From positions 20,322,501 through 20,386,500 of the forward strand of contig NC_091675.1 in NCBI RefSeq assembly GCF_042453785.1: a stretch of DNA of 64,000 bases. The letters run 5' to 3'. Positions within the stretch are counted from its first letter, which is position 1. Every line of letters begins with the position of its first letter. The notes under the pieces are model-generated. The model saw only the letters and a list, made by a program, of their open reading frames with translations, searched no databases and was not told where the DNA came from. This DNA is from Malus domestica (Eukaryota > Streptophyta > Magnoliopsida > Rosales > Rosaceae). Shown piece after piece: positions 12,042 through 43,804 of the stretch. Both the position numbers and the translations under genes were made by a program.

Positions 12042-12289
12042 TGTTGTGACATATGTTCTAATCAATATTGTGATCGTGTAAATCATAAGTAAAGATAGAA
12101 TATAAATCCTTGGGGATCTAAAAGATCTTTCCTAATAAGTTTTGTATTATTTGGAAAACAAGTTTCTCTCTTCCTTAATACTATAAATAAAGTCACAAGG
12201 ATTGGGGAATGAAAACACAATTCCTTAAGCCTATTCTCCACTCTCTTTCTCTCCACGCCGCACCCCTCAGTTAAATATAGGCCACAACA
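12042..12289 (+). repeat. 5' LTR of Copia A
   Basis: Starts TG and ends CA; carries a TATA-like CTATAAATAAAG near 12180 that would serve as the element's core promoter. It matches 18459-18706. Confidence 0.93.
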
Positions 12290-12303
12290 CGTTATCAGCA
12301 CAC
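12290..12303 (+). other. Primer-binding site of Copia A, tRNA-Ile half type
   Basis: CGTTATCAGCAC follows the LTR directly. It lacks the TGG that pairs with a tRNA CCA end. Its complement, GTGCTGATAACG, matches the anticodon arm of eukaryotic tRNA-Ile (GTGCTAATAACG in the gene), differing only at nucleotide 34, which is inosine in the mature tRNA. See findings. Confidence 0.6.
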
Positions 12304-15300
12304 TCTTTACGCTGTGCTAAAGAGAATTTATTCATCTTCAATTAGGAGAGTATTACTTTTCAATTGTTTTTAATTAATCAAATTTTTATTTTATTGAATT
12401 CATATACTTTTATTAATTCAATTTTATTTTTCTTGTGTTGAATGTGATACAAGCTTTGGAGATGGAAAGCCGACATTGAACAAATAATTTTCTGCATCAA
12501 ACCAGTTCACCAATATCATCACGCAATTAGGTTCTTCCAAAACAACGATTTTTATCTCAATATCTTTGCAGCCCCAATAGCATGAACATTCACCATAATG
12601 CATGACCCAATTTTACGTTTTTCGAATTTTAGATTCTACATAAATTATGTCTACATTATATCCATAATTATGGAATTATGTGAATTGATATTGCATGAAC
12701 TTATATATAGATCAGTATTAAATTATATATGCATATAATTGAATCTGAAAAGAAAAAAACAACAATACAAAAATTAGGGTTTTAAACCTAGACGAGCCGC
12801 AGCTTCAAGCCGCCTAACCCTGAGCAACAAGCTGCTAGCTTGCCAAGCTAGCAGCCTGAGCCGCTGGAGCCTAGCAACCTGCGAGCCAAGCCACGAAGCC
12901 ATGATGGCTCTTGCACCCACCTCGACACCTTCCACGGCGTCGCCACCAGGAAAACCAACTCAAACATGGCTAGCAGTCATGCCTAGCCATAGTGGTTGCC
13001 ACCCCGACGACCTGAAGTCATCCTTATCTTGGTTTTTGGTAGAGATTCACATGAATCTCGCCGGATTTTTGAAAAATTGTTTTTCAAATCCAAGGGTTAC
13101 CTAGTTTTATAGACGTCTAGCTCTTCATGACTCTGTCGCTGGCCTAGTTCCTCTGTTGGAATCCGACTTTCCTTGATAGTCTCAACCTTAAACACAACCG
13201 CAAGAAGCGACAGTGCTGGGCTTCCTCTCCGGCTATCACTTCCAGGGACGCTGGGGTGTTCTTTGGTCCAGTATGAGCCCAAATTGAGCTTCATTTTCCT
13301 TTGGCCCGTAATAACAACCCTATGGGCTTCTCCCAGGGTTTGCCTACAGTAGCCCAGCCCACTGTCGTTAGCCTTTTTTCTTCGTTTAGCCCTTGACGCC
13401 ACATATCTTACCCCTTTGCTCGGCCCACATCTTTCCTAACCCAATATTACGCTTGAGCTTTATATATATACAGCCCCATGTGGGCTTTGGTTGAATTTTG
13501 GACCTGAAACTCCATACTTTTAGGGTCGTTTCACTTAACTTTTAAATAATGGGTCCCGAAGCTACCCACTTTTAATATATTTGTTTTCAATTGCTATATA
13601 TTATGTCTTGTATTTATTGCATTTGTTTGCAGGTACTATGAACCTGAAGTTTATAATTCCGAACCTTAATTTCAGAAAAGTGCCATAGAAACCTAAAGTT
13701 TCTTAATGCGCAACACTCATGTTGAGACCAAAAGTTCTATATGCTTAAATCCGTTTAAACCAAACCATGTCTTAGAACCTGAATGTTCTAACTTTGATGT
13801 TTATGGAAAATTTATTTCCTAAAACACTAATCACATTCTTGTTTCTGTCATTCAGAGTATTGTCAAATCGTAACAAGTTCGATTTCACTGATTTGGAAGT
13901 TTCAAACAAGAAACTGCTTTGTGGATACAAGATGTGACACCCTGCTTGACTAGGATTAGTTGGGAAATCATTATAGCCAGTTATGGTGTGGAATAGCTGA
14001 ATAAGCCTCCCCTTGATCTTCATTCGAAGACTTATGTCTGAAGCATATCAAATGGAAGTACCTTACTTTCGAGGACTCCATTGCTCCCTAACTCGCTATG
14101 GATCATTTCACATCATGCAAAGATGAATTCTTGCTCGAACCAAAACATGATTGGAAGAAAATCTTTCTCGTCCTTCTATATCTAAATTGCTCCTGAAGTA
14201 GTAGTATAGAAAGCAAAAGTTTACCAAATTCTTGGATCTAATTACTATCACACGTGTGAGAGAATGGTACCCCATCAATTTGGCTGGGAGATACCAAATG
14301 GTATCGACCCAGTCTCAGCAGGTGGTGCCCTACTTCAGCAAGGATGCACCGACATGCATTCTCTGCTTGACAGAGATACACCGAAGAGCATGCTCTGTTT
14401 CGACAGACTACTACTCTGTATCGGCAAACATGCACCGAACGGTACTACTCTGCTTCGGCAAAGGCCTACTGAACAAACCCTTCTAGCTTCGACTAAAGCT
14501 TACCTAACATACCATTCCAGGTTTGGCTAGAGCCTACCGAACCCAAGGTTGGGTCTATCTCTCTCTCAAAATCCCAATGCGAGTTTGTTTTACAACATAT
14601 GGTAGAATTAGGCCTGCCAAGAGGTGGTATCATGCCCGAAGCATGATCCTTGGCACCTAAGACCTAAAAACTTTAAGAATATGGGATAGTATTCCTGAAC
14701 CTCAACCCTGCAAAATCTAACTCCGTTTTGACGAAATAGATCATTGGTTATGCACTTTTCTGTGCTTTTACCAATATTGTGAGGAGTACCATTCCTATAG
14801 TCAATATGTGAGACTAATTTTGCTCCACCTAACACATTTGGAAGAGCAAAATTTGACATGGAAGGCCTATTGGCCAAACCCCTTTGTATATTTGGTTTAC
14901 TTTGTGAATAATTTATTTTGTTCTCGGATTTAAGATTGGTGTTCGGATGTCACGATTATTCTCGAATAAGAATTAATTAACAAAAATTACCATATATGAC
15001 TAATACAATTAACTCATGCTTAGGTATATATTGTAGGGAAGTTAACAGTCTGGTTCTATGCTAACTACATACTTAAACATCCGTTGACAACCTTTGGCTT
15101 ATCCAACCTGATTGTGAGGCATAACGCTACCCTATATTGTCCAATGGTACTAATTTTACCATAAAGGGAAGCCTTATACTCATTAATTCCAGAAGAACAC
15201 CTTTTTAGATTTAAGGATATTCGAGAGTATTATTACCATATTGAAACCAATGTAGAAAATGGAGAAAAATTCCTTGGCATATTACCATATTGCACTTCCT

Positions 15301-18300
15301 ATGAATATAGCCAGAAACATATTCTAGAGAGGATAGAACGCTTAACGAATGGATTACACCCATTCAAGCCCACTATATGGCCGACCAAAAGCCCGTGATT
15401 CCAAAGAAATTTTTGTTATGGATGTACATTTGGGATATCTAAAATGATCCGTCACGTACCTTTTTGGGCATCCTCTTACTAGAAGTAAAGACATCTTACC
15501 TAGAAGCGTACCATGCCTTAGTACCCTTCATCTTTTCTACAAAGGATTCAAATAGGACATTTGTGGACTGATTCAACCACCATGCGGACCATTTAGATAC
15601 TTTATAGTATTGGTTAATGCTTCTACATGTTGGTCACACGTGTGGCTGTTGTCCATAAGCTGCATTCTCCACACTGATGACTCAGATTAGCAAGCTCAAG
15701 ACTCACCACCATGATTATCTGATCACATTTATTTGATTGGATAAGTTGGAGAATTTACATTGAAAACTTTCGATGGATATGGCTTGTTAGTTAGGTTTTT
15801 TGAAGTTGAACATCCAGTACCCCATGTTCATACCTAGAACGACCCAGCAGAAGCATTCATTAAACGTCTTCAAATGATTTCGCGATCGATTGGTCATACG
15901 TACCAAGCTCCCGATCTCGGCTTGGGACCATGCAATATTGCAAGCAACCATGTTGGTCCGCCTGAGGCCCATCACGACCCAACCTTACAAAGGACATGTC
16001 AGTTGGTTACCAGATACAAACTCGACATATCGCATTTACTCGTCTTTGGTTATGCAGTCTATATGCCATTTTGCGCCACCCTTACGTACAAAAGAAAGAA
16101 AGAAAAAAAAAGGTCCTCAAGGAAAGATGAAAATCTATGTCGGTTATGATTCGCATTCTAATATTTGTTACATAGAACCTTTTGACAGGCGATCTCTTTA
16201 CCGCTCATTTTACGGATTGTCACTTTTATGAGACAGTCTTCCCAGCATCAGGGGGAGATAAGAACGTCAACGTTCCTACAGAACGACACGAATTATCATG
16301 GACGTCCCCACTATGTCTTATCTCGATCTCAATCTAGATCGTCAAAGTATAACCAGACACTTCCTCTAATCTAATTAAAAATGACGAGATCACATATACG
16401 AGCTGCAAATGTGCCTGCAAAGATATGTACCAAATATACGACGGACCTTTGTCCCGAAAGTAGGAATGCCACTACTGTGGCCGACCCTCGTACATTGGCG
16501 GCTAGCCAATCAATCTATCTTACGCCAGAAGCGTGGCAAATCACTCGGTTCGAGGATTCACTTCCTCAAAATTGGAGGAACATGGCATAAACGAATCCGC
16601 CCCTCGATCGATGTCTCAATCCTTTTCATCTTATAAGATTAAATTTGAATTACTCCCGAGACCTGAAGTTCTTTGTCTAGTATACTAGTTTGGATGAGAT
16701 ATGGAATTCGAGTGAGATTATCATAGATAATGTTTCGTTTATATGGTAACTACTGACATAAATGAAAAACGATGATAATGAACCGCATTCCGTTGATTAG
16801 TGTCAACGTAAAACTAATTGATCAACTAGAAGAATCAATCGATATGATTGTTTGTAGCATTATAAACGTGGTTATAGTATCTTTGGGATCCTGATACGAA
16901 ACATACATGGAGTTTCCAAAGGACTTACATTTCCTGATTCAAATAGTTATAGACCACAAGAACACCCTCTCAGTTCTCAAGAGGCCTTCACTTTGTGGAT
17001 GTAGAACTATTTGGGTGGATGTGGTATACCCGTCTAAGTGAATATTGATCAGTTAGGGATATATGCCCATGCGTGTACAAAATCCAAAATTGCTAGAGTT
17101 GAGAATATTGGTTAGCACCTAAAGTTGGACTTTAAAATGAATGATCTTGGAAAAACTCGACATTACCTTGACCTAAAGTTTCAAGCTAGTTCTGATGGTA
17201 TTCTGGTCCACCACTTGAATTAGACCTAAAAGGTGTTATGTCTGAGTATACCCTGATCATCTATATGCTAGATGCAAATAAGACCTTTACGGACGGTATG
17301 GAGTGTAAGGTTCCATATTGGAACGTGAGGCAACCATATCTAAGTACCATTGGTGTTTGTTGTACTTAGCTCAATGCACTAGAATCGAACATCTTATATG
17401 TTGATAATCTTTTGGCATAAAGCAGCACTATGCCTACACGCCACCATCAAATTTAATGTTAAAGACGTTTTTCCGTTACTACAAATTTGGGCTTATCCAT
17501 CCTTATGCATCTTAGAATAGATCACACCCTTTTGATCATTGGAATGAAGCCTACCTTGTAGGATTTGCTAAATCAGACCATATATCTGACCACACAAAGT
17601 ACTTTCCCAAATGATTATGTCTTTACCATTAAAGGAACACTGTAATATCTTAGAGGTCAACCAGATAGACCTTTGTTGCGAAACCTTTGAATCATTCCAA
17701 GACTCACTATATCTCATCACGTGAAAGATATGGTCGAGAAATCTTGTGGAGCATATTCAAAATCCCTGCGTTTTTCATCTATCGTTAAGTCCTAATAACG
17801 ATGCACGAAGACAACGCCATATGTATCGACCAGATCATGGTACATCCAACAGTCAACACCAAGCATATTGTGTCTATATTAGCATGAGCATCAGAAGATT
17901 GAAGTCAACCAGTCTGATCCCAGATAACCTTTGCCGACCTCTACACGATGTCACTATCAAAGTCTACCTTTCAAAAGCTTGTTTGAGGAATTGGTATGCG
18001 TAACTTTCTCACTTGCAATGCTTGTAGTTTTATTTGGAAGTTTTATCAAACTTAGGGTGAGTATCCAGAAGTATACTCACTTGACCTTAATGTACTATTT
18101 TTCCTACGATTAGGAGCATTTTTCCTACTAGATTTTTGCCACCTGACTAGATTTTGACGAGGCACCTATCTTGGGTTGGTCATACCTTTGTGTACATCCT
18201 AGTTGCATCCCAAAGACATATAGTTTTAACTTAATACAACTTCTCACTTTTCTTCTTTGACTATGGGCTTTTGTCCCACCTTGGGTTTTTCCATGGCGAG

Positions 18301-18458
18301 GTTTTGTGAGTTTTACCACCCATGCATTGTTCCGTTTGTTTTGAGACTCACATTCGTTACTTGTGCCGACTAGACGAGACGACTTCATCAACTGCTTCTA
18401 CATTTGCCTGACGATTTGATGCCCCATCTACTTGAGTATTTGCACACTCAAGGGGGAG

Positions 18459-18706
18459 TGTTGTGACATATGTTCTAATCAATATTGTGATTGTGTAAAT
18501 CCTACGTAGAGATAGAATAGGAATCCTTTGGGATCTAAAAGATCTTTCCTAATAGATTTTGTATTACTTGGAGAGCAAGTTTCTCTCCTCCTTAATACTA
18601 TAAATAAAGGCACAAGGACTAAGGAATGAACACACAATTGCTCAAGCCTATTCTCCACTCTCTTTCTCTCTATGCCTCACCCCTCAGTTAAATATAGGCC
18701 ACAACA
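18459..18706 (+). repeat. 3' LTR of Copia A
   Basis: Directly follows the polypurine tract at 18450-18458. It ends CCACAACA before the ACAAA duplication. Confidence 0.93.
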
Positions 18707-18711
18707 ACAAA

Positions 18712-19993
18712 TAATTTATTATGAATAGTTACTTGATATTAACATTATAAATTTGTTAGATACATATAGTCATTAAAACGATCTATATAATTAATATGCA
18801 TTTCATAGAAATGATCTTAATTCAAAAGGATATTAATACAATGAATAGTTTTGATTATAAATTCTATATGACGAAAATATTTTAGTCGCAATGCTTGGAC
18901 AAAGTGGTGCACTAGCTCCATTAGATGGATGCAAGTATTTTTCATATTGGGAGGATATTTTGGTCATTTAAATTGGTATTCCGCTTCCATTTAGAGGTTG
19001 CAAATGATTTGATGTCTTTGTGGACAAGTATTTTGGAGAAGGAATTGAGTAGAAAAAGAAGGGAAAACGTAAGAGTGAGGAGAACAATCGAACAACCAAC
19101 GTGTGACACTGTATGTGGACGGTGGATGGGTTTTAGGTTTTTTATTTATTTATTTATTTTTTTTTTTGCACTACTTTACGTAGAAGATAAACAAAGCAAA
19201 GCAAACACACATAAATAGTTCCTAAAGACTAAAGAGTAAAGACCAGCTGCTTTTCTTTACCAAAAAATAAAATAAAAATAGACCGTACGTCCAACTAGGT
19301 CAAGTAAGTACCATTTTCATGAAAAACAAATATATACTCGTAACTATTTTGAATTACTTGATATGTTCATAGTCTTATTAATTAAACTGTAATTAAAATT
19401 AAAAAAAATATTAGTATTCGGTTCCTACTTCCTATAGCTACTAATGTTTTTTGACTGAGTGCTTATTATTTTTTCAAATTTGGATCCAAGTCTCTGACAT
19501 TAATGTATTAATAAATTTAGATGTTAGTGATATAATTTTTTTTTAAATAAAAATTGGTAACCAATTTAGAGTTTTAGTGCTCACACCTTCATTATAATCT
19601 CCTAATTAATTTTCAATTTAAAAAATTTTCAAAATACCAAAAAAAAATTAATTTTTTTAAGTTTTTAATTTTAAATGTACCCATTAAGTGTACCCATTCT
19701 TAATTATACCAATTTGTTATATGTAAAATGTCCCCCTTTTTTTATGTAAAACTCCGTTCATTTTTTTCTAATCCATTTTTTAAACTTATATGGTTACATT
19801 CTTTTTTCATGTATTTGAAGAATTTACTAGTGTTATTAAGCCTAATATCTATTATTTATTTTTATTTTTTTGGTTTTGAAGAATGTACCCATTTTTGGGT
19901 CTGAAGACGTTACGTACAATAAATTTTTGGTTAACTTTGATGAATGTACCCATGTTTATATATGTATGTGTGTATATATTTATGCAATATGTT

Positions 19994-20029
<36 letters not shown>

Positions 20030-20396
20030 TACTTTTTTATGGCAAGACATGATTTTCTATTGGTTTTGAATTTTCTTCCATGACGTTGGGAGTATAATTT
20101 TTTTTTTTAATATTTTTCAATCCCAAAATTATGGGTTTTATTTGAAATCTCATTAATATAAGCAACTACAAATTTCAATTTTTAAGTTAAAAACCAATAT
20201 AAGAACCAACATGAAAATATATCAATACATTAATGTTAGGAACTTCGATCAAAAACTAAAAACCAATAAGATTTCAGTAAAAAAACATCGGTAGTTAGAG
20301 ACTGCATAAAAAATCTCCCTAAAATTAATAAATTAAGTTTATGAGTTGGTCAATTGTTTCGCGCGGTGATCACTATTTTGTGTTAAATATATATAT
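18712..20396. other. Intergenic AT-rich stretch
   Basis: No gene recognised. It contains a TTTA/T-rich run (19138-19168) and a (TA)n(CA)n microsatellite (about 19996-20030) that produces spurious open frames. The 97-codon plus frame at 18925-19218 is of unknown nature and probably chance. Confidence 0.5.
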
Positions 20397-21480
20397 TGTT
20401 GCGAGTTGTAGTGTAAATATTAGTTAAATTGTACATGAGTTTTGTCCCACATCGGTGAAATACATGTAACACAATACTTGTAACTACTTCTATATATACT
20501 CCAAATGAAGTATTTTCTTAAAATCAACACTGCGCAATTCAAGCATGATATTTTTTTGTCTTAACGAAAATATGTTCTTGATTTGTTAGCTAAAACAGGC
20601 ATGTTAGATATGTAAACCTACTTATACTACATTGAGTAGAGTCATCACCTAGGTTTATTTCTGGATCATGTTCCTACTCATAAAGAATGATATCAAAGTC
20701 TTGTGGGGAGATTAATTTATTTATCTCACTCACACCATGACATTGCTTATGTAGTCAATTTTATGCACTCTCCTAGTGAAACTCATATGGATGTAGTGAT
20801 CCGTATTTTAAGGTATTTGAAGTTTGCTCCTGGCAAGAGCTTGGTGTTCTCCAAGAATGGTCATTTGATTGTTGAAGGGTATAGAGATGTAGATTTAGCA
20901 GATTCTGGCACTGCCAGATGATCTACATATGGACACTTTACATACTTGGAGAAGTAAGAAATAGAAAGTGGTTGCTAGGTCAAGTGCAGAAGCTGAGTTT
21001 CGTGGCATGTCTCATGGTGTCTGCGAGTTGTTGTGGTTGAGGAAATTGTTGAGAGATCATGGGTTTGGACCTAAAGGTGTTTTGAATCTTCATTGTGATA
21101 ACAAGATGACTATAGAGATTACTCATAATCGAATTCAACATGATCGTACAAAATATTTGGAGATTGGTCGACACTTCATCAAGGAAAAATTGGATGGTGG
21201 AATCATTACATTTTTTTTTTTTTGAGAACCGAGGATCAACTTGTAGATGTGCTGACTAAGGCAGTGTCTAGTAGTGGGTTTTCCAATTCGCTTGACAAGT
21301 TGAGTATGTGTGACATCTTTGCTCCAAGTTGAGGGAGAATGTTGCAAGTTGTGGGGTAAATATTAGTTAAAGTTGTCAATAAATTTTGTCCCACATTGAT
21401 GAAGTACATGTAACACCATACTTGTAACTCCTATATATATTTCAATTAAAAAATAATAAAATATATCAAAAATTCTTAAA
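20397..21480 (+). mobile_element. Internally deleted Copia remnant with two LTRs
   Basis: Two similar LTR-like ends (TGTTGCGAGTTGTAGTGTAA at 20397 and TGTTGCAAGTTGTGGGGTAA at 21340) flank only the 3' end of pol. Recognisable are GRLIYLSHSHHDIAYVVNFM (20703 on) and the RNase H stretch SSAEAEFRGMSHGVCELLWL, HCDNKMTIEIT and QHDRTKYLEIGRHFIKEKL (20970-21200), followed by a terminus with a GAGGGAGAA polypurine tract. Protease, integrase and most of the reverse transcriptase are missing, and a T-tract frameshift lies at about 21211. No target duplication was confirmed, and the right LTR end is indistinct. Confidence 0.8.
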
Positions 21481-21665
21481 ATATAATATTTAATATATTT
21501 GACATTTCCCATATTTAAATCAACTTATATACGGTCTAATTTATGTGCAGGGCATCGATCCCATCTTGATCATCATAATAATCTTGTAGGTTGATTGTAT
21601 GATTTGATTAAGGCATTTGGACGACTAATAATGAGATGGAATGATGAAGATGCTTATGTGTACGG

Positions 21666-21669
<4 letters not shown>

Positions 21670-21696
<27 letters not shown>

Positions 21697-21697
21697 T
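21670..21697. repeat. (AT)n microsatellite
   Basis: About 28 bases of alternating A and T immediately before the Emigrant-like element. Confidence 0.9.
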
Positions 21698-21705
21698 GAT
21701 AGATA

Positions 21706-22219
21706 CAGTAAAACTTCTCTAAAGTAGTACTCTATAAAGAAAAAATAGCTCTTTAAAGTCATAAAATATTTTGGTCCCAACTTGAGACCAATTATGTATG
21801 GGAATAAACTCCATATTTGTAGTAAGTTGTAATTTTTCTTGGTCCCATCATAAGGAACAAGTCTTCACATAATAATACTTGTCAACGAGTACAAAAGTCT
21901 GCAAATCACAAATAAAAGTTTAAGATGAACTAAAATATACCTCTGAAGTTGTTTTGGACAATGATTTAGCTTATAGAGTTTATTTGGACAATGATTTAGT
22001 TTATAGAGTTTATGTTACATCTTTGAGCTTGTGGGTATATATGTGCAAGAAATAATATACCTGGCGTCCACTGAATCGTACTCAGGAAAATACACCATTC
22101 ATAAGAATAAATAAGTCACTAATTAATATTCTTTTAACTATACCTCCATTGAGTAATAACTTCTCTAAAGTTTTAAAATGAGTTTGGTCCAACTTTATGA
22201 CTTTGTAGAGGTTTTAATG
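21706..22219. mobile_element. Emigrant-like (pogo/mariner) MITE, 514 bp
   Basis: The left end CAGTAAAACTTCTCTAAAG resembles the Emigrant/Lemi consensus, which begins CAGTAAAACCTCTATAAA. The right end TTTGTAGAGGTTTTAATG is its diverged inverse. TA dinucleotides flank both sides (21704-21705 and 22220-22221), the pogo/mariner target. The interior is non-coding and includes a tandem duplication of about 29 bp near 21959-22015. Confidence 0.65.
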
Positions 22220-22221
22220 TA

Positions 22222-23202
22222 GTAGGTATATATGTGGTTCATTTCTACAGTACTAAAATATTACATTATAATTTCCAAAGTTTATTGTCTAAATGTTACA
22301 TAATAATGGCGAGGTTATATGATAATATTGTTTATTATAATAACATTGATTGGTATATCATGAACGATATTATAGTATAGAATTATTAGTGAACGCCATA
22401 AAATTACATATTGTCATTATTCACCCTTTAGCTCCTTACCTTCCACTAAATGATATTACAATATGACATTAATATTCAATGTTGAAATTACAAAAATATT
22501 TGTAAGGTTACATTATATAATAATAGTTTAATTAACACAAACTAACATTATTACAATTGCAACGAGATTGATTTTACGTTTGTGAATGTCATATTACATT
22601 ATATACACATGTATTCAAGCAAATAACAGGAATGTAAAAACCAATATTTCCAAAGAAGGCAATATAGCGAGTTACAGGATTCTGGCCTGTGCCATCTAAA
22701 GATATAAGCGGTCCTGGCAGTACAGTAGTGCATGCTTGTTTAGTCACAATAATTTAGATAGTATAGTGAGAACGAGGTCTAGATTCTAGAAAATGATCAG
22801 TTCAGTGGGGTATCTCCCATGGACCAAACAAGTACGTGGTTTCATCTCCTTGTTTGTTGATCGAAATGTTAATTACTAATTGCTATCAAAAGTTCGTATC
22901 TAACAACAACTCATCATCAAAGGTGTTTTTTGAAAGATACCTTGATCTTTGAGAGATTTTTATGGTCTAATTTGAACTACTTTCTGCCAGAAACCTTGAT
23001 TTAATTAAAATCACGATCGTATCCCATTAAATCCTTTTAGTTATTTATAGGTTTTTTGTAACTGATGAAACTGGTTTTCCAGAATCATTCATTATAATTA
23101 AATATATAGTGTGGTGAAAAAAGAATATTGATCGGATTATTTAATAGTGTATTTCCTTGACATGTTATATCATCAAAGTCGAATATGATTTCAGTATTTG
23201 AT

Positions 23203-23237
<35 letters not shown>

Positions 23238-23485
23238 TAGGGAAACTTAATTCCAATACTTAATTCCTAAACCTTAAACTCTAATTTTTTTTTTCCTTCA
23301 ATATATTCACAATAATGTTTTTTTCGTGATGGCAATGTTAGTGTATAAGTAATATTGTTGTTTTAATTAAACAAATAAATAAATAAAAATTCCAATACTT
23401 GATCAAAAAAGACTTCCTCAATTCAATGATTAAATTCAGCATATCAAATTTTGTGTGTCTAAATAGCATTATTATTGCCACTTAA
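22222..23485. other. Intergenic AT-rich stretch
   Basis: No gene seen. An (AT)n microsatellite lies at 23203-23234. Many short palindromic TATTATAAT motifs occur between 22250 and 22560, perhaps another decayed MITE. Confidence 0.5.
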
Positions 23486-23690
23486 TACTACGGTCTAGTG
23501 GTTTTCCTGTTCACTTGTAAGTGAGAGGTCTTAGGTTCGATTCTCGCCAAGAAGGAATTTATACCATATTATTACTAGCCCATTATGAGACTAAACTCAC
23601 CCCCTCCCTCATAGTGTGGAGCAACATTGCAGGCATATAAGTTAAAAGGCCGCACAGCGGGGTCTCTGTGTGTTGAAACTTGATCACTTT
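23486..23690 (+). mobile_element. tRNA-derived SINE
   Basis: ACGGTCTAGTGGT resembles a Pol III A box and GGTTCGATTC is a perfect B box, about 40 bases apart. A related copy at 36363 shares TGAGAGGTCTTAGGTTC and flanking sequence. This is the layout of a plant SINE head, not of a tRNA gene: no acceptor-stem pairing is present. The 3' end is uncertain. Confidence 0.65.
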
Positions 23691-24507: not shown

Positions 24508-24510
24508 TTA

Positions 24511-24884: not shown

Positions 24885-24887
24885 TTA

Positions 24888-25530: not shown

Positions 25531-25533
25531 TAA

Positions 25534-26395
25534 GGCCTTGTTTGGCACACCGTATAAGACACCGGATAGTACTAATAATACAGTGTACGGTGTTTGGTGG
25601 CCGTTTGGATTAAATAAGCACCGGATTAAATAATCTGGGCCCACCTTTTTTATCCGGTGTTTACCTGCTTGCTTATATCATCCAAATTCCCAGCATAATT
25701 TAGTCGGCCTCGCTCTTGCTCACGCTTCCTCTCCGCTCGCAAACTCGATCCCCTCTCTCTCGCCTTCTCTTGGCATTGTCGTCCTCCCCATCACCTTCTC
25801 TCGCCACCACCGTCCTCACTGTTGCCTTCTCTCACCGTCGCTATGTCGCCGTTGCTTTCTCTCGCCATCTTTGCTCTCCTAGTCCTCATCCCCTTCCTTG
25901 TCGTCCTCTCCTTGTGGCCTTCCTCATTGCCTACTCGTCGTCCTCCCCTGCAACTGGGTTTTCTGCAATCGGGTTTTCTGCCGTCGTTTTCTGCGGCGGA
26001 GATATGATTTCAATTTGCTGTTTGAATTTATTTGGGATTCTTCTGCGGTTGGGGAAGAAGAAGAAGAAGAGAGAGGGAGGGAGTTTGGGGAACAATTATT
26101 TGGGATTCTTCTGTGGTCGGGGAAGAAGAAGAAGGGAGAGAGAGAGGGAGGGAGTTTGGGGGGTGCAGAGAGATCTGGAACAAGATTTCAGTTTTTTTAT
26201 TTTTTTTATTTTAAGTTTAATTTTATTTTAAGTGTGATTCCTCCTATTCGATATAATACCAAACACAGTATAAATAATACGGTCATTAATCCGATACTGC
26301 ACCAAACACCCGATTAATTTAGTCAGTACTATCCGGTGACTATTTATCCTCTCCAACAGAAATAGTCAGTACAGTCCGAGCTGCCAAATGGGGCC
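25534..26395. mobile_element. Tourist/Harbinger-like element, 862 bp, with C/T-rich cargo
   Basis: Ends GGCCTTGTTTGGCACAC and, inverted, GGCCCCATTTGGCAGCTC, inside TAA duplications (25531-25533 and 26396-26398). Subterminal GGTGTTTGGT/CACCAAACACC motifs are also inverted. Between the arms lies about 300 bp of strongly C/T-rich, GC-rich DNA with a duplicated GAAGAAGAAG...GGAGGGAGTTTGGG block. The 171-codon plus frame there (25716-26231) is low complexity and I do not call it a gene. The element is longer than a typical MITE. Confidence 0.8.
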
Positions 26396-26398
26396 TAA

Positions 26399-28137
26399 AA
26401 AATAAAAGCTGAAAATTCAGAAAGTTCAAAATAGTAATATAAAAATTACTCACTTTCCAACAAAGAGTTAGGCCATTAGATCATTTACCAATATAAAACA
26501 ATGTTTTTAGATTATAATTAGAGAGGAAAACTAGAGTCAGATATTGAATAAATTGCCCTCTCTGTAGAACTAAGAAAGTGTGCTGCTGAGGTTAAACTTG
26601 ATTTAGCCAAAAGTTGCAAGCACAAAAATGAAAAAGATGGCTGTGCAGAAAATGTTATTGTTAGGTTTAGCGTAACCAGCAAAAGGAGATTCTTGGGGGT
26701 CCTATTAGGATCTTACAGACCTTTTTGACATCGACCACCCTCCAAACTTTCTTTCTCAAATCTCAATCTCAGAATTACACCTTACCCTTTACAAATTATG
26801 TTTTGAAATTATGTCTTCTTTTTAATATATGGTTTTCATGGCGGTTGGTGAAGAGAAATGACCATGATTAATTTTGTCGATTAATAATTAATTACTAATT
26901 ATCCATAACAAGTAGTACACACTTTACCATCACTCCCTCTTTATCTAAGGTGTGAAGCACAAGGTTCTTTCAGGGACATGGATGATCATTGCATTTGTTG
27001 CAGCAACTAACTCTAAATTAACATTTTATTCACAAATATATTACTTCTAGACTCTAAGACCATAGAGAATTAGAGATTGGAATTATAAAGACCAATTGTT
27101 AGAGCCTAATTGATGGAATTTGTTTGTACCTAATTTCTAGCTTATTTGTGAGTGGAAAAAGTTGAATTAAAACTTGTATTTTGTCATTTATATGAGGTGA
27201 TGATTGATCATAATGCAAATTAGAGTGGATATATCCTGTGGCTAATTTATATAAGCATATATATGATATATCCTGGCAATATTACAGTTATGTTGGTTTT
27301 GTTATTGGAATTATTATAATAAAAAGATAGAGAAGAGAGTGTTGGAGGTTGAACCCAAACCACTCATGGTGTGTGTGTCAATGAAGTAACAATGAAACAG
27401 ACTGAAAAAGGGGGAAAAGAGCACAAAGCAATTCATGTGCAATTGAATTGGTAGCAATTTATGAGAAATGGTATTGGCACATGTGCTGCTAAGTGTAATA
27501 TTTGAATTGGTTCACTCTAGACGACATCCTTTTCCATTTTTTTTTCCCTTATTCAATAAATGTCTATATGAGATTTGAACCTTAAACTTGTTCTAGTAAC
27601 ACTCAATATATATAGAGGTCGCATTCGCATGTGAGATTTGAACTTAGAACCTCTTTCAACTGTGTGAGGGTATGCTGATATATTGTTAAAGAGGTTATCA
27701 TCTTGAACAGGAACTCTCTAGAGGTATGGAAATGGGGGCATATGGGCCATTGATTGAGAAAGGATTCGAATAGATGCCATGATGTGCAATGGGTTAGTTG
27801 AGGTGTCCTCTGCGAGCAGCATGAGCAGCACATATAGCTATGTTAAAGAGAGCTTTCTAAGGTTTCAGTGGAATGTCCAAGTCGAATCGATGATGATGAT
27901 GATGGCGTTGATGATAACGCGTTGATCGAATTGACTTGTTAGATCTGTTGCTTGTGTTGCACAGACATACCTCTTTTGGTTCTTGATACATTTTGGCCCT
28001 GATTAAACATGTTGGTTTGTGCTTGTTTTTGTCAAAAAGGTCTAATACATTCTTTGTCTCTAGCTCTTACCTCTTTTTCTTTTAGAAAACTTTTTTTTTT
28101 CAGTCACATTAATTTCTGTAGATGGATGAAAACTGTA
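26399..28137. other. Intergenic, nothing recognised
   Basis: AT-rich with no recognisable coding exon. A 76-codon minus frame (27603-27833) shows no domain. A (GAT)n run lies near 27888-27903. Confidence 0.5.
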
Positions 28138-28142
28138 GTAAA

Positions 28143-28445
28143 TGTTAGTGTGTAAATTGTGATCTGATGTGGCAGTTGTAATTCTAGCTCATATTGCTAG
28201 AATAATTAGCTAAGTGCTAATTTGGTTGTATGTTTTTTATTTGAGTCTCATAGGTCTTAAGTAAGTAAGGTGCCATGTGTCTACATCTCATAGGGTGTAA
28301 GATGGAAGGCTGAGATTGCCTTGATGTATTTTGAATACTGCCAAAAGTGTATAACTGTTAGAAGTAGAGTGGTATTCCTTCACACTCTTTCTCTAGCGCA
28401 TGTCATGGTGAATGTGTGAAAATCTCATAGTCATATTCTTTGTTG

Positions 28446-28477
<32 letters not shown>

Positions 28478-28527
28478 AGCGCATGTCATGGTGAATGTGT
28501 GAAAATCTCAGAGTCATATTCTTTGTT

Positions 28528-28575
<48 letters not shown>

Positions 28576-28672
28576 ATCATCATCCTTCATTTTGTATTAA
28601 GAATTCATCTAAATTCTCTGTGAATCTATGAAGTCATAGCTCAAAGTGTACCATTTTCAATTTACTCTAAAA
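28143..28672 (+). repeat. 5' LTR of Copia C (expanded)
   Basis: 530 bp, longer than the 445 bp 3' LTR because an approximately 80 bp unit (TCTAGCGCATGTCATGGTGA followed by a CT microsatellite) is present twice, at about 28392 and 28475. The two (CT)n tracts are at 28447-28470 and 28530-28568. Confidence 0.88.
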
Positions 28673-30205
28673 TGGCCTTAGAGCCAGGTTGGGTCTTAAA
28701 TCTTTGGGCGTCGATTCTGTGAGTGGTAGTGAGTTCATTCTCACAACATCTTGTTGCAGAGAAACCAGTGAGAGAGAGGTGTGATCTTAGTCTAACATGG
28801 CTGGGTCTGGCGGAAGGGAGCTTCAAGCTCTGATATTCAACGGAGAAAACTTCAATTTCTGGAAAATTCGAATGAAGACGATTTTCTGATCTCACGAGTT
28901 ATGGAGTATTGTTGAGACAGGTTTTACTTCTCAAACAAAGGCGGACGAAGAGAGAACAGAGGTGGAGATGAAGCTGCATCGTGAAAATTTGGTCAAGGAT
29001 GCAAAGGCTATTGGAATCATTCAATGAGCTATATCGGATCAGATTTTTCCACGCATTGCAACTCTAGAAACTGCAAAAGCAGCATGGGATATTATAAAGT
29101 AAGAGTTCATAGGAAACAAGTACGATATGTGAAATTACAGGGTCTTCGTCCTGATTTTGAGTACACTCATATGAGTGAAGGTGAGTCTCTAGCTGCATAT
29201 TTGGCTAGGTTGTTTGATTTGATAAATCAGATGATGAGTTATGGAGAGCATCTTAGTAATCAAAGAATTGTGCAAAAGTTATTGATCAGTTTACCCAAAA
29301 CAAATGATAATATAGCTTCTGTTATAAAGAATACTAAAGATATTGAAGTAATTGATGCTCAAGATATGGTTACTATATTGAAAGGGTATGAACTGAGGCT
29401 AACTAGACATAGAGAAAGTAGTACTGAGCGTGCATTTACTAGTTTGAATATCTCACCTAAAAATGGTAAATTTGGTAATCAAAATGTCAATGCTGGTGGA
29501 ACAAAATTTCAAAAGAATTTCAAGTTCAAAGGGAAGTAGTGGAATAATAAGTTCACCCCAGGTGTAAGAAATGAAACTAGCAACACTGATGGTGCTTGCA
29601 AATACTATGATAGACTCTACTATGGAAAGTGTTGGATGAAAGAGAATATCAAATGTCATAAGTGTGGCAAGCTTGGCCATATGGCCAGGGTCTGTAATCT
29701 CAATAAGAATGTTCAGCAAGGGAATTTTTGCAAACAAAGTGGAGGAACCTGGAAATCTTTTTCTTGTTAAACAAACAAGTGAAGTGAAAACTGTAAGTGA
29801 CATCTGGTATATAGATAGTGGATGTAGCAATCATATAACCTCCAGAGAATATCTGTTTGTGGATATTGATAGAAGTATTAAAGCAAAAGTACAAGTTGGC
29901 ACATGAGTTCTAGTTGATGTGAAAGGCAAATGAACTCTTGTTATTGACACTGAGAAGGGAAAGAGGTATATAAGAGAAGTCATGCTAGTACCTGGACTTG
30001 TAGAGAATTTACTCAGTATTGGACAGATGACTGAACATAGGTATCTTCTTGTGTTTGGTGATTACAAGGTGGATATCTTTGATGACAAAACACTGACAAA
30101 CTTAGTGGTTAGTGTGAAGCAAAAGAGGAACATGTGGTTTCCATTATTGTTCAAATCCAATTAAAAACTAATATGCATCAGTGTGCTACAATGTGGCATA
30201 CAAGG

Positions 30206-31899
30206 CCGGTCTTGAGTTTTTGGATGCCCAGTGCGAAAGCTCAAAATGTGCCCTTTTTTAATACTGAAATATATGTTTAAAAAATATTTAAAGAGAGCTG
30301 GAACCCAATCGAAGCTGGGGGGCTAGGCCCTCATGCCTAAATTATATTACTTGAGAAAATATACAACGGGGTGGACATAGTACCTAAACCCCGACAATAA
30401 AAAATACAATCATATACAACCATTCCTAGCAAAGCTCCTTGAAATTTCAACCTTTAAGAAATTGTCTTCTAGCATTTTTTGAAGCAAAATCATCAATTAT
30501 ATCATCATACTCCAAGTCTTCAATCTCATCATTTTCAATGCATAAGATTGCTAATCCATTTAGCCTATCTTGAGTCATAGTGGTCCGAAGGTAAGATTTT
30601 AATAATTTCAATTTTGAAAAACTTCTTTCTGCAGATGCCACAGTCACATGTATATACTTAACAGTACATGATAAGCAATCAAGACATTAGGACACATGTC
30701 AGTTTCTTTTACAAAGTTTGCTATTTCCATGGATGTCCAAGGGTTATTAGAGAGAAATTCTTGTTCAAGTAACATCATTTGCAACACCTGTAATTCAAAA
30801 CATAAGTCAGCTCCATCTACATCCATGGTATTTCCATGTTTCAAATTTGCTTCAAGATTCATACAATTTTCTATTAGTTGTTGATCATCCAATGAAATTA
30901 ACTTCAGTGCATCAAACAAGAAGCCAAAAATAGATTCAAAAGTCTTTAACTGTTCAAACCTGTTTTTCAGTTGAGAAAGAGGAATATACACAATAATAAG
31001 AAAATAATTTGTTCTAAATGATTCTTCAGTAGATTGTTGTTCCCTCTCATTACCATCAACTTCATCATGATGTCTTTTTCTAGGTCTATGACGTTTAGTT
31101 TGAAAAATAGGGTCAATTTCCGAATCAAGTGCAATGTCTTTAGCATCACGCATAGCAGAAGCGAAACCAGTTTCTCTATAATTTTCAAAAAAGGTAACAA
31201 GTGCTTCCAATGCCTTTATAGCAACATCAAGACGCATGTCTTCAGATTGTAATTTTGTGCTCACCATGTTAATCTTCAACAAAATGTCATACCAAATAAC
31301 CAAACTTAATACAAAATCAAAACTGGAAAGTTCTCCTGATGCTAAACATCCTGCATCCCTACTCAATTGGGGATTCTCAGTAATTTCCACCAACGTAAAC
31401 AATGCATTTCTAACTTGGGCTACTAGGGATTTAATTGCTTTAACAATTTCAATGTGACTTTCCCATCAAGTAGTTGACAATGATTTCAAAGTTAAACCAT
31501 CAACATGTTCAAACAAAATATTCCAACGCTTTGTAGAGTTGGAAAACACCGTATATATGCATTGAAATGATCCAAAAAAAGATTTTGCTTTAAGACATGA
31601 ACTTGCCATATCACAAACTATTAAATTAAGACAATGAGAACCACATGGCATGTAAAAGGCTCTGGGATTTATGTCTAGCAATCTTTTCTGGACACCTTGG
31701 TGTTTCCCTTTCATGTTAGATCCATTATCATAACCTTGTCCCCTCACATTATCAATATCAAGATCAAATATCATGTCTAGCAATCTTTTCTGGACACCTT
31801 GGCTTCTTTTATTGTTTTTAATGATTGCGGTTTTGACTTTTGAAGCTAAAGTAATTATCCACTCATTTTGGATTTTATGGCTCAAATACTGATTCTTGG
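30206..31899 (-). mobile_element. Truncated hAT transposon nested in Copia C
   Basis: It separates Copia codons for ...CATMWHT from RFGHLNYRSLKQL. Flanking 8-mers ATACAAGG (30198-30205) and ATAGAAGG (31900-31907) agree at 7 of 8, the hAT target length. Minus-strand translation gives the C-terminal part of a ZMYM/TTF-type hAT transposase: GYDNGSNMKGKHQGVQKRLL, FYMPCGSHCLNLIVCDMA, and finally ASAERSFSKLKLLKSYLRTT with MTQDRLNGLAIL (hAT dimerisation region, 30560-30640). The left end (GGCCGGTCTTGAG) resembles hAT termini. The N-terminal half and right end are missing, and frameshifts separate the pieces. It is dead and younger than Copia C. Confidence 0.85.
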
Positions 31900-34568
31900 A
31901 TAGAAGGTTTGGACACCTAAATTATAGGAGTCTGAAGCAATTACGGGAACATGATATGGTTCTTGGATTACTTGTGATGCATGATAGTGAAGGTGTGTGT
32001 CAAGGATGAGCATTGGGAAAGAATTACATAGAGTATTTTCCAAAAGAATCAACTTGGAGAGCAAAGATGTCACTGAAACTAATACACCCAGATGTGTGTG
32101 GCCCAATGCAAACATCAACAATGAGCAGAAATAGGTACTTCATTACATGCATTGATGACTACTCAAGTATGTGATGGATCTATTTCTTGAGACACAATTC
32201 AAAAGTCTTCCATGTGTTCAAGAAGTTTAAGGCTATGGTAGAGTTTCAAAGTGGTTATTCTGTGAAGAAATTGAGAACTGATAGAGGAGGAGAATTCATT
32301 TCAAATGAGTTTGAAAAGTTTTGTGAATCTTTGGGGTTAGAGAGCAGCTCACTGTTGCATATTCTCCACAATAGAATGGAGTTGCAGAAAGGAAAAACAG
32401 AACTATAGTGGAGATGGCTAAATGCATTCTTCATGAGAAAGACCTTTCATATAATTTCTGGGGTGAAGCAATGAACACATATGTGTATTTGCTAAACAAG
32501 TGTCCCACAAAAGCATTGGAGAATATTACACCCTTTGAGAAGTTCAGTGGAAGAAAACCTAGAATTAAACACCTGAGAGTGTTTGGCTCAGTGTGTTATT
32601 TTCTCATTCCAGAAAATTTGAGGCATAAACTAGAAGAAACTAGTGTCACTGGTATCTTCATTGGATATGGTACTTGTGAGAAAGGCTATAGAGTGCTTAA
32701 TCCTGAAACACATAAGGTGATACTCTTAAGGGATATGATCTTTGGTGAAAATGGCAAATGGCACTGGGAGAAACATAAAGTCAAGGAAGTGTGCATTCCA
32801 TTTTCTGCAAATGAATCTCTGGAGATGAGTGAAGTTGATGAAGGTTCAGATTCCATAGAACATGTTGTATCTAAAGGTTCTCAAATCCAAATTGATGGTT
32901 CTCCAGCTATTGTCTCTGGTGAATCAATCAGTTATGTCTCTATACCTCAGTATGATGATACTTCACTAAGATATAGAAACTTAAGTGAGATTTATGGAAG
33001 ATGCCATTTGTGTATCATTGAACCAGAATGCTATAATGAGGCTGCACAGGATGAAGCATGGAAGAAGGTAATTGAGGATGAAATATGTATGATTGAGAAG
33101 AATTAGACATGGGAATTGGTAAGGATACCATCTGATAAACCTGTGATTGGGGTAAAATGGGTGTATAAAACAAAGTTGAACTTAGATGGCTTAGTTCAAA
33201 AGAATAAAGCTAGGCTTGTTGCAAAAGGCTATGCACAAAAGCCTGGGATAGATTATAATGAAACCTTTGTACCTGTTGTAAGGTTAGACACAATAAAGAC
33301 TTTGATTGCACGGGCTGCAAAGAACAAGTTGAAGCTATTTCAGCTGGATGTGAAATCAGCTTTCTTAAATGGTGTACTTGAAGAAGAGGTGTATGTAGAT
33401 CAGCTAGATGGGTTCATTGTGCAATGAGATGAGGATAAGGTTTACAAACTGCACAAAGCTTTGTATGGTTTGAAACAGACACCTAGGGCGTGGTATGGAG
33501 AGATTAATTCATACTTTGCACAGTGTGGTTTCAAAAAGAGTACCAATGAGGCAACATTGTATACCAAGTGTAGAAAAGACTCAGAGATGATTATAGTGTC
33601 CATTTATGTTGGATATATAATCTATACTGGAAGCTGTCAAGATTTAATGGATGAATTCAAAGTTGATATGATGCATAAATATGAGATGATTGATCTGGGA
33701 CTCCTACATCATTTTCTTGGTATGAGAGTAATGTAAACTGAAGAATGTATTTTCATACACCAAAGAAAGTATGATTCATCTCTGTTGAAGAAATTTGGAC
33801 TCCAAGTGATAAATTGTAAACTTGTGAGCACACCACTGGTACCAAGTGATAAATTGAGAAATGAAGATGAAAGTGGAGCTGCAGATGAAGTTAAGTATAG
33901 AAAACTTGTAGGTAGTTTGTTGTATCTCATAGCAACTAGACCTGACATAATGTATGATGCATGTTTGTTAGTAAGGTTCATGCATTGTCCTACTAACAAA
34001 CATTATGGGATAGCAAAGAGGGTTCTAAGATATGTTCAGAGGACTCTTGACTTTGGCTTGGAGTACAAGAAAGGAAAAATAGCAATTCTAATATGATTCT
34101 ATGACAATGATTAGAGTGGTTCAAAAGAAGACATGAAAAACACATCTGGGTATGCTTTTACCTTTGGCAGTGGAGTTTTCTCTTGGGCTTCAATCAAGCA
34201 ATAATGTGTTGCTTTATCCATAGCTGAAGCAAAATATATTAGTGCATCTGAGGCAACAACAAAGATTACTTGGCTAAGGTTTGTTCGGAAGACTTTGGTG
34301 AAGTGCAATATGTTGCAACACCAATGAACTGTGACAATACTTCAGCCATAGCTATCACTAAGAATCCTATTTTTCATCATAAAACCAAGCATATAAACAG
34401 AAGGTATCATTTCATAAAGGAGGCATTGTAGCAAGTAGTGATTGATTTGGTTCACTATCCTATAAAGGAGCAAGTTGCTGATATCTTTACAAAGGCATTA
34501 GCAAGAAAGCAATTCACCAATCTTAGAGAACTTCTTGGAGTGAAATCAGTTCACAATTCAAAAGGGGC

Positions 34569-35013
34569 TATTAGTGTGTAAATTGTGATATGATGTATCT
34601 TTCTTATTTGAGTCTCATAGGTCTTAAGTAATTCTAGCTCATATTGCTAGAATAATTAGCTAAATGCTGATTTGGTTGTATCTTTCTGATTTAAGTCTCA
34701 TAGGTCTTAAGTAAGTAAGGTGCCATGTTTCTACATCTCATAGGGTGTAAAATGGAAGGCTGAGATTGCCTTGATGTATTTTGAATACTGCCAAAAGTGT
34801 ATAACCGTTAGAAGTAGAGTGATTCCTTCACTCTCACTCTTTCTAGCGCATGTCATGGTGAATGTGTGAAAATCTCAGAGTCATATTCTCTATTGCTCTC
34901 TCTTTCTCTTCTCTCTATCATCATCCTTCATTTTGTATTGAGAATTCATCTAAATTCTCTGTGAATCTGTGAAGTCATAGCTCATAGTGTACCATTTTCA
35001 GCTTACTCTAATA
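34569..35013 (+). repeat. 3' LTR of Copia C
   Basis: 445 bp beginning TATTAGTGTG (5' copy TGTTAGTGTG). Near its start the block TGAGTCTCATAGGTCTTAAG occurs twice, about 90 bp apart, unlike the 5' LTR, so the two LTRs have rearranged independently. Confidence 0.88.
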
Positions 35014-35018
35014 GTAAA

Positions 35019-36362
35019 TGCAAATAAAATAACAATAACAAAAAGAAAATTTAATTTCCTGAAATCATAGCAAAGTTTAGAGGGTTTTCAAATGCTGCAG
35101 GAAGTGGACTTGTCACTAAGGGGTATGGAACATCATATAAATGATTACACTTGACTCACTGCCTTACTGGGAAATAAATGTGATTGAGATTTCAAATACC
35201 ACTTTATAAATTTTTTTCCTTTTTCCAGTGATGTTTTTATGGCCTTAATTCCTTCATCTAATCTGCAGGCCACACTGGCCCCATTAGGGTTTCTGAAATC
35301 CTAGACCTGTAAACATCTTGTCTAAGTTATAAAATGATCGATTTAATCAATTATCATAAAGAGTTCATAATGCTGTTTGGAAAAAAAAACAGATAATAGT
35401 CAGCTTTATTTCAGGGTTGGGAATGAATGTATTTTTCTACACTACAACAAATTGTTTTAGGCAAAAATATGATGAAAGAGGAAGAGCTTTTTAATGCATG
35501 TAATCACAATGCATTCAATTTTAAGCATTGCACAGTTGTTTAATCCATCAAACCAGTCATAATTATTTTACTTTAAACTGACTCTTTGAAGAAGCAAGAA
35601 GATGAAAATAAAAGGTAATGGTACTTGTGTGCATGAACATATTGGTGGTTTTACTCACTCTTTTTATAATAAACACTAGCATATGGGCACACACAAAGTG
35701 TGTGAGAAATTTTTTTAGTTTTGTTTTTGAAATAGAAGGAGAAAGGAAGAGAGTGAAAGAGAATGTAGAAGTGGGAAGTTTTTATTGTTATTATTTTTAA
35801 TTAGAGATATATTAGGATTACATGTAGGTGAGGCTTTGGAAGAAAAAAAACAGCAAAATTTGGTTGTGTGAAATTATATTTCTACCCCATATTTCTTATT
35901 CATGTTATGTTTTAATTAGAGGGTTAAACTGGTAATTTCATAGGGTTTTGGTTGACAATGAGTATTTTATTAATTAGTAGAGATGAACTTAAGCAACAAA
36001 CACTAAATACAATTCCCAATTTTTCTTTCAGGGAAACCACAACGGTAAAAAAATTATAATACATGTGAGTCTCATAATGAGTATCTCATTATATATTAGC
36101 AACTAAGATCTCACATATGCACAACTACCTAGCATTCTCTGAAATTTAAAAGTAATGCCACTTTTGTTGCAAAACTAACTATTGAGAGAGAGAATAGTGA
36201 ATGTAGAGAAAAATAAAAGGGCTTGAGGAATCCTCATGCCTAGTGCCTTTATTTATACTAATTGTGATGAATTTTTTTGCCTACAAGTAATACAAAGCCT
36301 ATTAAGATTTGATCTCCAAATCACATTGTGATTCCTACTTTAAGTTTACACAATCACGCCAC
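35019..36362. other. Intergenic, nothing recognised
   Basis: AT-rich; short open frames only. No gene or element boundary identified. Confidence 0.5.
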
Positions 36363-36532
36363 TTAGTTCTACGGTCTAGTGGTATTTCTTTTTCACTTGT
36401 AAATGAGAGGTCTTAGGTTCAATTCTCGCCAAAGGTGAATTTGAATCACATCAGTACTAGCTTAAGACCTAGTAAGTGAGAGGTCTTAGGTTCAATTCCC
36501 CCAGAGTGTAGATATATCATTTGTTCGGAAAA
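36363..36532 (+). mobile_element. tRNA-derived SINE with poly(A) tail
   Basis: ACGGTCTAGTGGT (A box-like) and GGTTCAATTC (B box) as in the 23486 copy. A second AGTGAGAGGTCTTAGGTTCA block at about 36472 shows an internal duplication. It ends in GTGTAGATATATCATTTGTTC plus a nine-A tail. Its 3' end is included in the duplicated flank of Copia B. Confidence 0.65.
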
Positions 36533-37090
36533 AAAAATTGTACACAATCACATTCCAAAAGAAACACACCATCGACAATAACTTTTTTTCTTTCTTTTCT
36601 TTTTTCACTTAGTCTCTTACATGATTAAAGATAGGATTAAGTACCCAAAACTCCCAAACTTTTTAGTGTCATTCTATTGGTCTCAACTTTTTAAACAATC
36701 CAAACAAGTACCCAATTTATTGAAAAGTAAGCCCTAGTTAATTTGACAAAAATTTAATTGGAGCTTAACGGATGTGACATTTTCAATAGGTCGGGTACTT
36801 GTTTGGAATATATAAAAAGATTGAGACCAATTTAGAATGACACTAAAATGTTGGGGGTTTTAGGTACTTCATCCTTAAAGATATAATTGCATATTTTTGT
36901 CATAGAGTTAATTTCACTTTACCCTCAAGTTCGCCACTAATTGTATATTTAGGACTCATTTGGTAATATCAGCCTGAATTAGATAACTTCCTAATCTATA
37001 TTTAGTAATTATAGAATGAAGAAATAGGTGTCATATTGCATATTTTGTACAAGTTGCTTACAAAACAAAAATTAGTAATAAAGAACTAAT
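36503..37090. repeat. Flanking direct duplication, copy 1 (left of Copia B)
   Basis: About 590 bp running up to the 5' LTR of Copia B, from GAGTGTAGATATATCATTTG to TAATAAAGAACTAAT. It matches 43805-44396 almost end to end (about 96-97% identity by eye). It contains no gene. Confidence 0.92.
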
Positions 37091-37359
37091 TGTTGCAGTT
37101 CTATTAGATTAGGAATGTGATTGTGTAAATCCTAGTATATCTTGGAATATCTTTTATATTCCTATTAGGAGTTGATTACCTATTAAATGTTGTAATCCTA
37201 AAGGGAAAGGTTTTTACATATCCTACTACTATAAATAAAGGCACAATGGGGTGGAATAGAATACACCCACAATTACACATCTCTCTCATTCGCTCTGCCT
37301 ATTGTCGCACCCCTCTTTCTATGACCTCTATATTTGTTCAGTAAATTATGCCTACAACA

Positions 37360-37373
37360 CGTTATCAGCATGC
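37360..37373 (+). other. Primer-binding site of Copia B, tRNA-Ile half type
   Basis: CGTTATCAGCATGC directly after the 5' LTR, the same core as in Copia A. The C opposite tRNA nucleotide 34 is conserved in both elements. Confidence 0.6.
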
Positions 37374-43700: not shown

Positions 43701-43804
43701 CACAATGGGGTGGAATAGAATACACCCACAATTACACATCTCTCTCATTCTCTCTACCTATTGCCGCACCCCTCTCTCTACCTATTGTCGCACCTCCTTC
43801 CCCC

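What the first reader, a model, noticed from the sequence alone, without database searches (positions are those of the whole stretch)
12286..37373. Copia family A/B appears to be primed by a 5' half of tRNA-Ile, with C at the inosine position
Seen: in both A and B the 5' LTR is followed with no spacer by CGTTATCAGCA(C/T), not by the TGG... of a tRNA 3'-end primer site. Its complement, GTGCTGATAACG, equals nucleotides about 29-40 of eukaryotic tRNA-Ile(AAU) (GTGCTAATAACG in the gene) except at nucleotide 34. Known: A34 of that tRNA is edited to inosine, which polymerases read as G. A primer site regenerated by copying the mature tRNA would therefore carry C there, exactly as seen in both elements. 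Known: Drosophila copia uses an anticodon-loop-cleaved 5' half of initiator tRNA-Met. Inferred: this plant lineage uses a roughly 40-nt 5' half of tRNA-Ile(IAU). Element D in the same window has the ordinary Met-tRNA 3'-end site, so two priming modes coexist here.
Basis: partly seen in the sequence, partly recalled or inferred. Interest (0 to 1): 0.8.

Follow-up and report, generated by a model that had tools for sequence, protein, structure and literature searches.

The report
Bianca-type retrotransposons with half-tRNA-Ile primer site
Two decayed jumping genes in what looks like the apple genome carry a start site for DNA copying that fits the edited front half of the isoleucine tRNA, a feature already described for the plant Copia lineage called Bianca.

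Summary
In A and B the 5' LTR is followed with no spacer by CGTTATCAGCAC / CGTTATCAGCAT, complementary to nt 29-40 of tRNA-Ile(AAU) with C opposite nt 34. The host looks like apple. LTR end plus site occurs 882 times in that genome, 0 times reversed. In a sample chosen without using the site, position 7 is C in 89 of 100 listed copies and T in 11, a rate like the other C/G positions. All 21 tRNA-Ile genes found encode A34, so the C fits inosine. Several unlike leader types share the site, and mosaic copies change ancestry at it, as strand transfer there predicts. A tRNA 3' end or self-priming does not fit the six elements tested.

No call here tested the primer RNA itself.

The parts
12042..12289 (+). 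Element A 5' LTR, TGTTG...CAACA
   Evidence: target duplication ACAAA at 12037-12041 and 18707-18711
12290..12301 (+). Element A primer site CGTTATCAGCAC, complementary to tRNA-Ile nt 40-29 with C opposite nt 34; next base A does not pair with C28
13725..18007 (+). Element A decayed GAG, PROT-INT and RT-RH remains in Ty1/copia order
   Evidence: tblastn with L083 frames
18450..18458 (+). Element A purine tract AAGGGGGAG
18459..18706 (+). Element A 3' LTR, 225 of 248 aligned bases identical to the 5' LTR
37091..37359 (+). Element B 5' LTR
37360..37371 (+). Element B primer site CGTTATCAGCAT; the last T stands opposite G29 (G-U)
38789..43101 (+). Element B decayed GAG, PROT-INT and RT-RH remains
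   Evidence: tblastn with L083 frames
43552..43808 (+). Element B 3' LTR, its end missing (right edge approximate)
56815..56826 (-). Element D primer site TGGTATCAGAGC, ordinary Met-tRNA 3'-end type, for contrast

Best explanation
A and B are dead copies of Ty1/copia elements of the Bianca type. Their reverse transcription was most likely primed by the 5' half of cytosolic tRNA-Ile, with A34 edited to inosine and the tRNA cut in the 3' side of the anticodon stem after nt 40. Nt 28-40 of that half pair with CGTTATCAGCACG directly after the 5' LTR, inosine opposite C. Minus-strand DNA then starts at the last LTR base, and plus-strand transfer happens at the same bases. Shown: the site, its position, copy number, the C at nt 34, A34 in the tRNA genes found, and mosaics that break at the site. 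Inferred: cleavage of the tRNA and use of the half as primer.
For: Site directly after the LTR in A and B; 882 genome copies of LTR end plus site, reversed 0; in 100 listed of 207 places chosen without the site, 83 are within one change of CGTTATCAGCACG and position 7 is C in 89; complement of tRNA-Ile nt 28-40 apart from nt 34; A34 in 21 of 21 tRNA-Ile places; non-C at position 7 in 104 places against non-G at position 9 in 180; several leader types with the same site; mosaics with a switch at the site; no CCA-end or self-priming fit in six elements; the same reading published for Bianca, and two-ORF layout in two copies.
Against: No RNA or cDNA evidence. A and B are decayed and each departs from the commonest 13 bases (A at position 13, B at position 12). 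Position 14 is C in F1 and F2, so the match stops at nt 28 there. The mosaics could come from ordinary recombination in the shared 19 bases. Other tRNAs were not surveyed: one search was too narrow and the others (plastid tRNA-Ile) did not complete. The leader-chosen sample covers one leader type only.
Confidence: 0.85

Rival explanations
1. The C opposite nt 34 is kept because it pairs best with inosine, not because each cycle rewrites it from the primer; priming is by the same tRNA half, but the site is inherited through the element's own RNA.
For: Position 14 is C in 35 of 36 F1, F1C and F2 leaders, not the A that copying through nt 27 would give; the stretch alike in all leader types is about as long as the pairing.
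Against: The standard LTR-element cycle copies part of the primer into plus-strand DNA (established knowledge, not a call); copying that stops at nt 28 would fit F1 and F2 as well.
Confidence: 0.4
2. A complete tRNA primes from its 3' end, as in most plant Copia elements, and the half-tRNA match is chance.
For: Most Copia lineages do this (PMC6317226, passages), and D in this window has such a site.
Against: No TGG in the first 8 bases after the LTR in the six elements tested; the 13-base match is far from chance by my arithmetic.
Confidence: 0.03
3. Self-priming from a piece of the LTR, as proposed for TAR elements.
For: Known in plant Copia lineages (PMC6317226, passages).
Against: Longest LTR complement to the site is under 6 nt in A, B and L020 and 6 nt in L006, L008 and L021; the published definition asks for 10.
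Confidence: 0.02
4. The primer is an organellar tRNA-Ile with encoded G34, so no editing is needed.
For: G34 would explain the C.
Against: As recalled, the plastid tRNA-Ile(GAU) anticodon stem differs from the site outside the loop; not confirmed by any search, since the search did not complete. Priming takes place in cytosolic particles (established knowledge).
Confidence: 0.04

Closest known systems
Bianca lineage of plant Ty1/copia (Neumann et al. 2019, PMC6317226, passages)
   Same: Primer site complementary to half tRNA-Ile with A34 edited to inosine; GAG and POL in two ORFs with a spacer.
   Different: Spacer 244 and 251 nt in L083 and L082 against a published mean of 172 bp. Placement on the RT tree not tested.
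Drosophila copia and yeast Ty5 (PMC5371799, passages)
   Same: Ty1/copia elements that prime from an internally cut tRNA half.
   Different: Ty5 uses initiator tRNA-Met, copia too as recalled; here tRNA-Ile with inosine.
Osser, Bryco and part of Gymco-II (PMC6317226, passages)
   Same: Half-tRNA primer sites in Ty1/copia of green plants.
   Different: They use half tRNA-Met.

Membership tests
Bianca (Ty1/copia) | Ty1/copia domain order GAG, PROT, INT, RT, RH | tested here: met
   L083 frames: integrase core, then RVT_2 downstream; GAG model matched below its curated cut-off (22.2 of 27 bits) and zinc knuckle just below. Remains of the same order in A and B. The 135-aa GAG piece of L082 matched no Pfam family.
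Bianca (Ty1/copia) | Primer site complementary to half tRNA-Ile with inosine at nt 34 | tested here: met
Bianca (Ty1/copia) | GAG and POL in two ORFs with a spacer (mean 172 bp) | tested here: met
   2 of 2 coding copies looked at (L082, L083): 251 and 244 nt from the GAG stop codon to the first POL ATG. Both copies also carry other stops or frameshifts. Not testable in A and B, which are too decayed.
Bianca (Ty1/copia) | RT, RH and INT cluster with REXdb Bianca references | not testable with these tools
   No labelled reference at hand. L083 RT-RH remains about 30% identical to C and D by tblastn, while the 120 best of 3954 database hits are 57-97% identical, many from other eudicots.
Half-tRNA primed elements of the copia / Ty5 kind | Primer is the initiator tRNA-Met half | tested here: not met
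   The site fits tRNA-Ile. It works like these, but with another tRNA.
Self-priming Copia (TAR) | At least 10 nt of the 5' LTR complementary to the site after the LTR | tested here: not met
   six elements, at most 6 nt

The most novel reading that the evidence does not exclude
The primer site is a genomic record of the mature primer: each replication cycle rewrites it from the cut, edited tRNA half. The C then records A34-to-I editing, its 5' edge records the cut after nt 40, and its 3' edge at nt 28 (27 in leader type F4) records where copying of the primer stops, perhaps at a methylated G26. Retroelement ends could then be read as fossils of tRNA editing and cleavage in past hosts.
Probability: 0.4. 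Interest if true: 0.45.

Novelty: already known. Interest (0 to 1): 0.25.

Why it matters
It supports, from one genome and with controls, a published sequence-based inference: a plant Copia lineage primes on the edited front half of a tRNA. Primer-site finders that look only for tRNA 3' ends would miss such elements. It also offers a way to ask who cuts tRNA-Ile in plants and whether editing is needed. Mosaics that switch ancestry at the site are evidence for its role that does not rest on the tRNA match.

Tried and rejected
A hairpin right after the site: many F1, F2 and F3 leaders can draw a short stem, and one pair changes on both sides between types (positions 17 and 32: T-A in 13 of 17 F1, C-G in 13 of 16 F2). 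By type, folding energy is not better than shuffles (median p 0.23 to 0.66), though A and B taken alone give p 0.027 and 0.037 among the 50 leaders tested. Kept only as a remark.

A bipartite primer site, with ACGCT in that loop pairing with tRNA nt 23-27: only 4-5 nt, and not seen in the F3 and F4 leaders printed. Dropped as likely chance; judged by eye.

F4 as a non-coding element: I thought so from its ORFs and wrote 'LARD-like' in the notebook. tblastn then found INT and RT remains in L081, so that note is wrong.

Relatives in viral contigs: 0 matches. A general tRNA pattern gave 10 places, 7 of them one tRNA with anticodon CAG by my reading, too narrow to survey tRNAs.

Full report
What is there. 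Element A has a 248-bp 5' LTR (12042-12289), a 3' LTR (18459-18706), a 5-bp target duplication ACAAA and a purine tract. Its LTRs agree at 225 of 248 aligned bases. Directly after the 5' LTR comes CGTTATCAGCAC. Element B has a 5' LTR at 37091-37359 followed by CGTTATCAGCAT. Both bodies hold decayed GAG, PROT-INT and RT-RH remains in Ty1/copia order and no plus-strand stop-free stretch above 117 aa (A) or 105 aa (B). Element D has TGGTATCAGAGC.

The host. The window is part of a 651-Mb, 19-contig genome. The two closest proteins to the RT-RH frame of copy L083 are Malus domestica, 96-97% identical, so I take the host to be apple or a near relative.

More than chance. LTR end plus site, ACAACACGTTATCAGCA, occurs 882 times (452+430), 0 times reversed. 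To avoid choosing copies by the site itself, I searched LTR end and downstream leader with 13 free bases between: 207 places, reversed 0. Of the 100 listed, 50 have CGTTATCAGCAC exactly, 43 also the next G, and 83 are within one change of those 13 bases; the expected base by position counts C91 G90 T100 T99 A98 T100 C89 A99 G85 C90 A100 C89 G87. Limits: this sample was chosen by one leader type, positions 14-18 are fixed by the pattern, only 100 of 207 are listed, and some copies are in both samples. Of the 30 loci, profiled only the 17 it found in plus orientation.

Match to tRNA-Ile. Two genes fit a 35-base tRNA-Ile pattern; ARAGORN calls both tRNA-Ile, anticodon aat. Their nt 28-40 read CGTGCTAATAACG. 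The site is the exact complement of nt 28-40 except for C opposite nt 34. A 20-base pattern with N at nt 34 found 21 places, all A34. C is the partner expected for inosine. Copies with another base at position 7 number 104 (of 100 listed, 96 T, 2 A, 2 G); copies with another base at position 9 number 180 (of 100 listed, 81 A, 16 T, 3 C; reversed control 2). T at position 7 is thus no commoner than change at that neighbour, and the T count of 11 lies among the commonest changes at the other C/G positions (7 to 11 each). A further control at position 3 did not complete.

Several leader types. The first 48 places listed, plus A and B, were read. By leader they sort into F1 17 (A and B included), F1C 3, F2 16, F3 4 and F4 10 (my sorting by short words). 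They share the first 11 site bases by choice of sample, so they show that unlike leaders go with the site, not how conserved it is. Three F2 rows (L047-L049) are identical in the stretch printed, so rows are not all independent. The tRNA match ends at nt 28 in most F1, F1C and F2 rows (position 14 is C in 35 of 36), varies at nt 28 in F3 (G in 1 of 4), and reaches nt 27 in F4 (position 14 is A in 10 of 10). L081, an F4 copy, holds decayed INT and RT remains; by eye its 3' LTR starts after AAGGGGGAG. L084, an F3 copy, holds an L1-type LINE frame and no Copia remains detected in the 7 kb read.

A footprint that does not rest on the tRNA. L021, L032 and L034 differ from L020, L026, L027, L029, L030 and L037 in the LTR (66-70% identity) but match them at 96-98% in the 300 bases after the site. 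L021 matches the F2 copy L008 at 276 of 280 bases in the seven 40-base windows from -260 to +19, then L020 and L026 from +20 to about +200, then L008 again (40 of 40 twice beyond +220); L032 follows L021, and for L034 I saw the pairwise values and the last 70 LTR bases. The left switch lies inside the shared ACAACACGTTATCAGCACG. One template switch in minus-strand synthesis plus plus-strand transfer at the primer site gives this mosaic. Ordinary recombination in the shared 19 bases would look the same.

Alternatives. In the six elements tested there is no TGG in the first 8 bases after the LTR, so no CCA-ended primer fits, and the longest LTR stretch complementary to the site is 6 nt or less, so self-priming does not fit. 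Other tRNAs were not surveyed: one search was too narrow, and and the plastid tRNA-Ile searches did not complete.

What is known. Neumann et al. 2019 (PMC6317226; passages; [quoted passage not shown] L083 and L082 show the two-ORF layout, 244 and 251 nt from the GAG stop codon to the first POL ATG. Half-tRNA priming in copia and Ty5 is mentioned in PMC5371799 (passages). A whole-word search for Bianca, copia, PBS, tRNA and Ile found that one paper. The 12 site letters were in no paper of the library, and an overlapping 11 letters in three papers whose titles are unrelated. 'half-tRNA' occurred in none of the 20 papers listed of 167, 'tRNA-Ile' in none of the 25 listed of 74, and a search on tRNA fragments and inosine listed 15 of 45, none about this lineage by title. 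Arabidopsis homologues of the enzymes for I34 are described in PMC2956550 (passages). That m2,2G sits at nt 26 of this tRNA is recalled.

Verdict. I put half-tRNA-Ile priming at 0.85; rewriting of the C from inosine in each cycle is plausible but open (0.4).

Noticed in passing
36496-37090 and 43798-44396: B's upstream flank is repeated directly after its shortened 3' LTR, 95.8% identical, and the second copy still shows the unoccupied insertion site. This looks like a crossover between B's 3' LTR and an empty allele; a short run of shared bases lies at the join.
   Followed up: partly
L083 2103-2346 and L082 2465-2715: The spacer between GAG and POL is AT-rich (70% in L083), 94% alike in the two copies, and ends TTCATTCTAG just before the POL ATG, like a plant intron end. 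Splicing was not tested.
   Followed up: partly
L021, L032, L034 (with L008, L020, L026): Mosaic elements: F2-type LTR, then another type's leader from the primer site to about +200; for L021, F2-type again beyond.
   Followed up: yes
L084 537-3707: An L1-type LINE frame (endonuclease and RVT_1, 1057 aa, no stop) lies a little downstream of an F3 primer site.
   Followed up: no
28145-35011: Element C: LTR pair with TGGCCTTAGAGCCAGG close after the 5' LTR, which looks like a decayed Met-type site, and Copia GAG, INT and RT pieces interrupted by minus-strand frames that by eye look like a hAT-type transposase (no family search made).
   Followed up: no
positions 14-35 after the 5' LTR in F1 and F2 leaders: A possible short stem right after the primer site, with one two-sided change between types; energy not significant by type.
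   Followed up: partly
L047, L048, L049 (C1:14.34-14.42 Mb): Three F2 places about 41-42 kb apart with identical printed sequence around the site, as if a segment holding the element were repeated in tandem.
   Followed up: no
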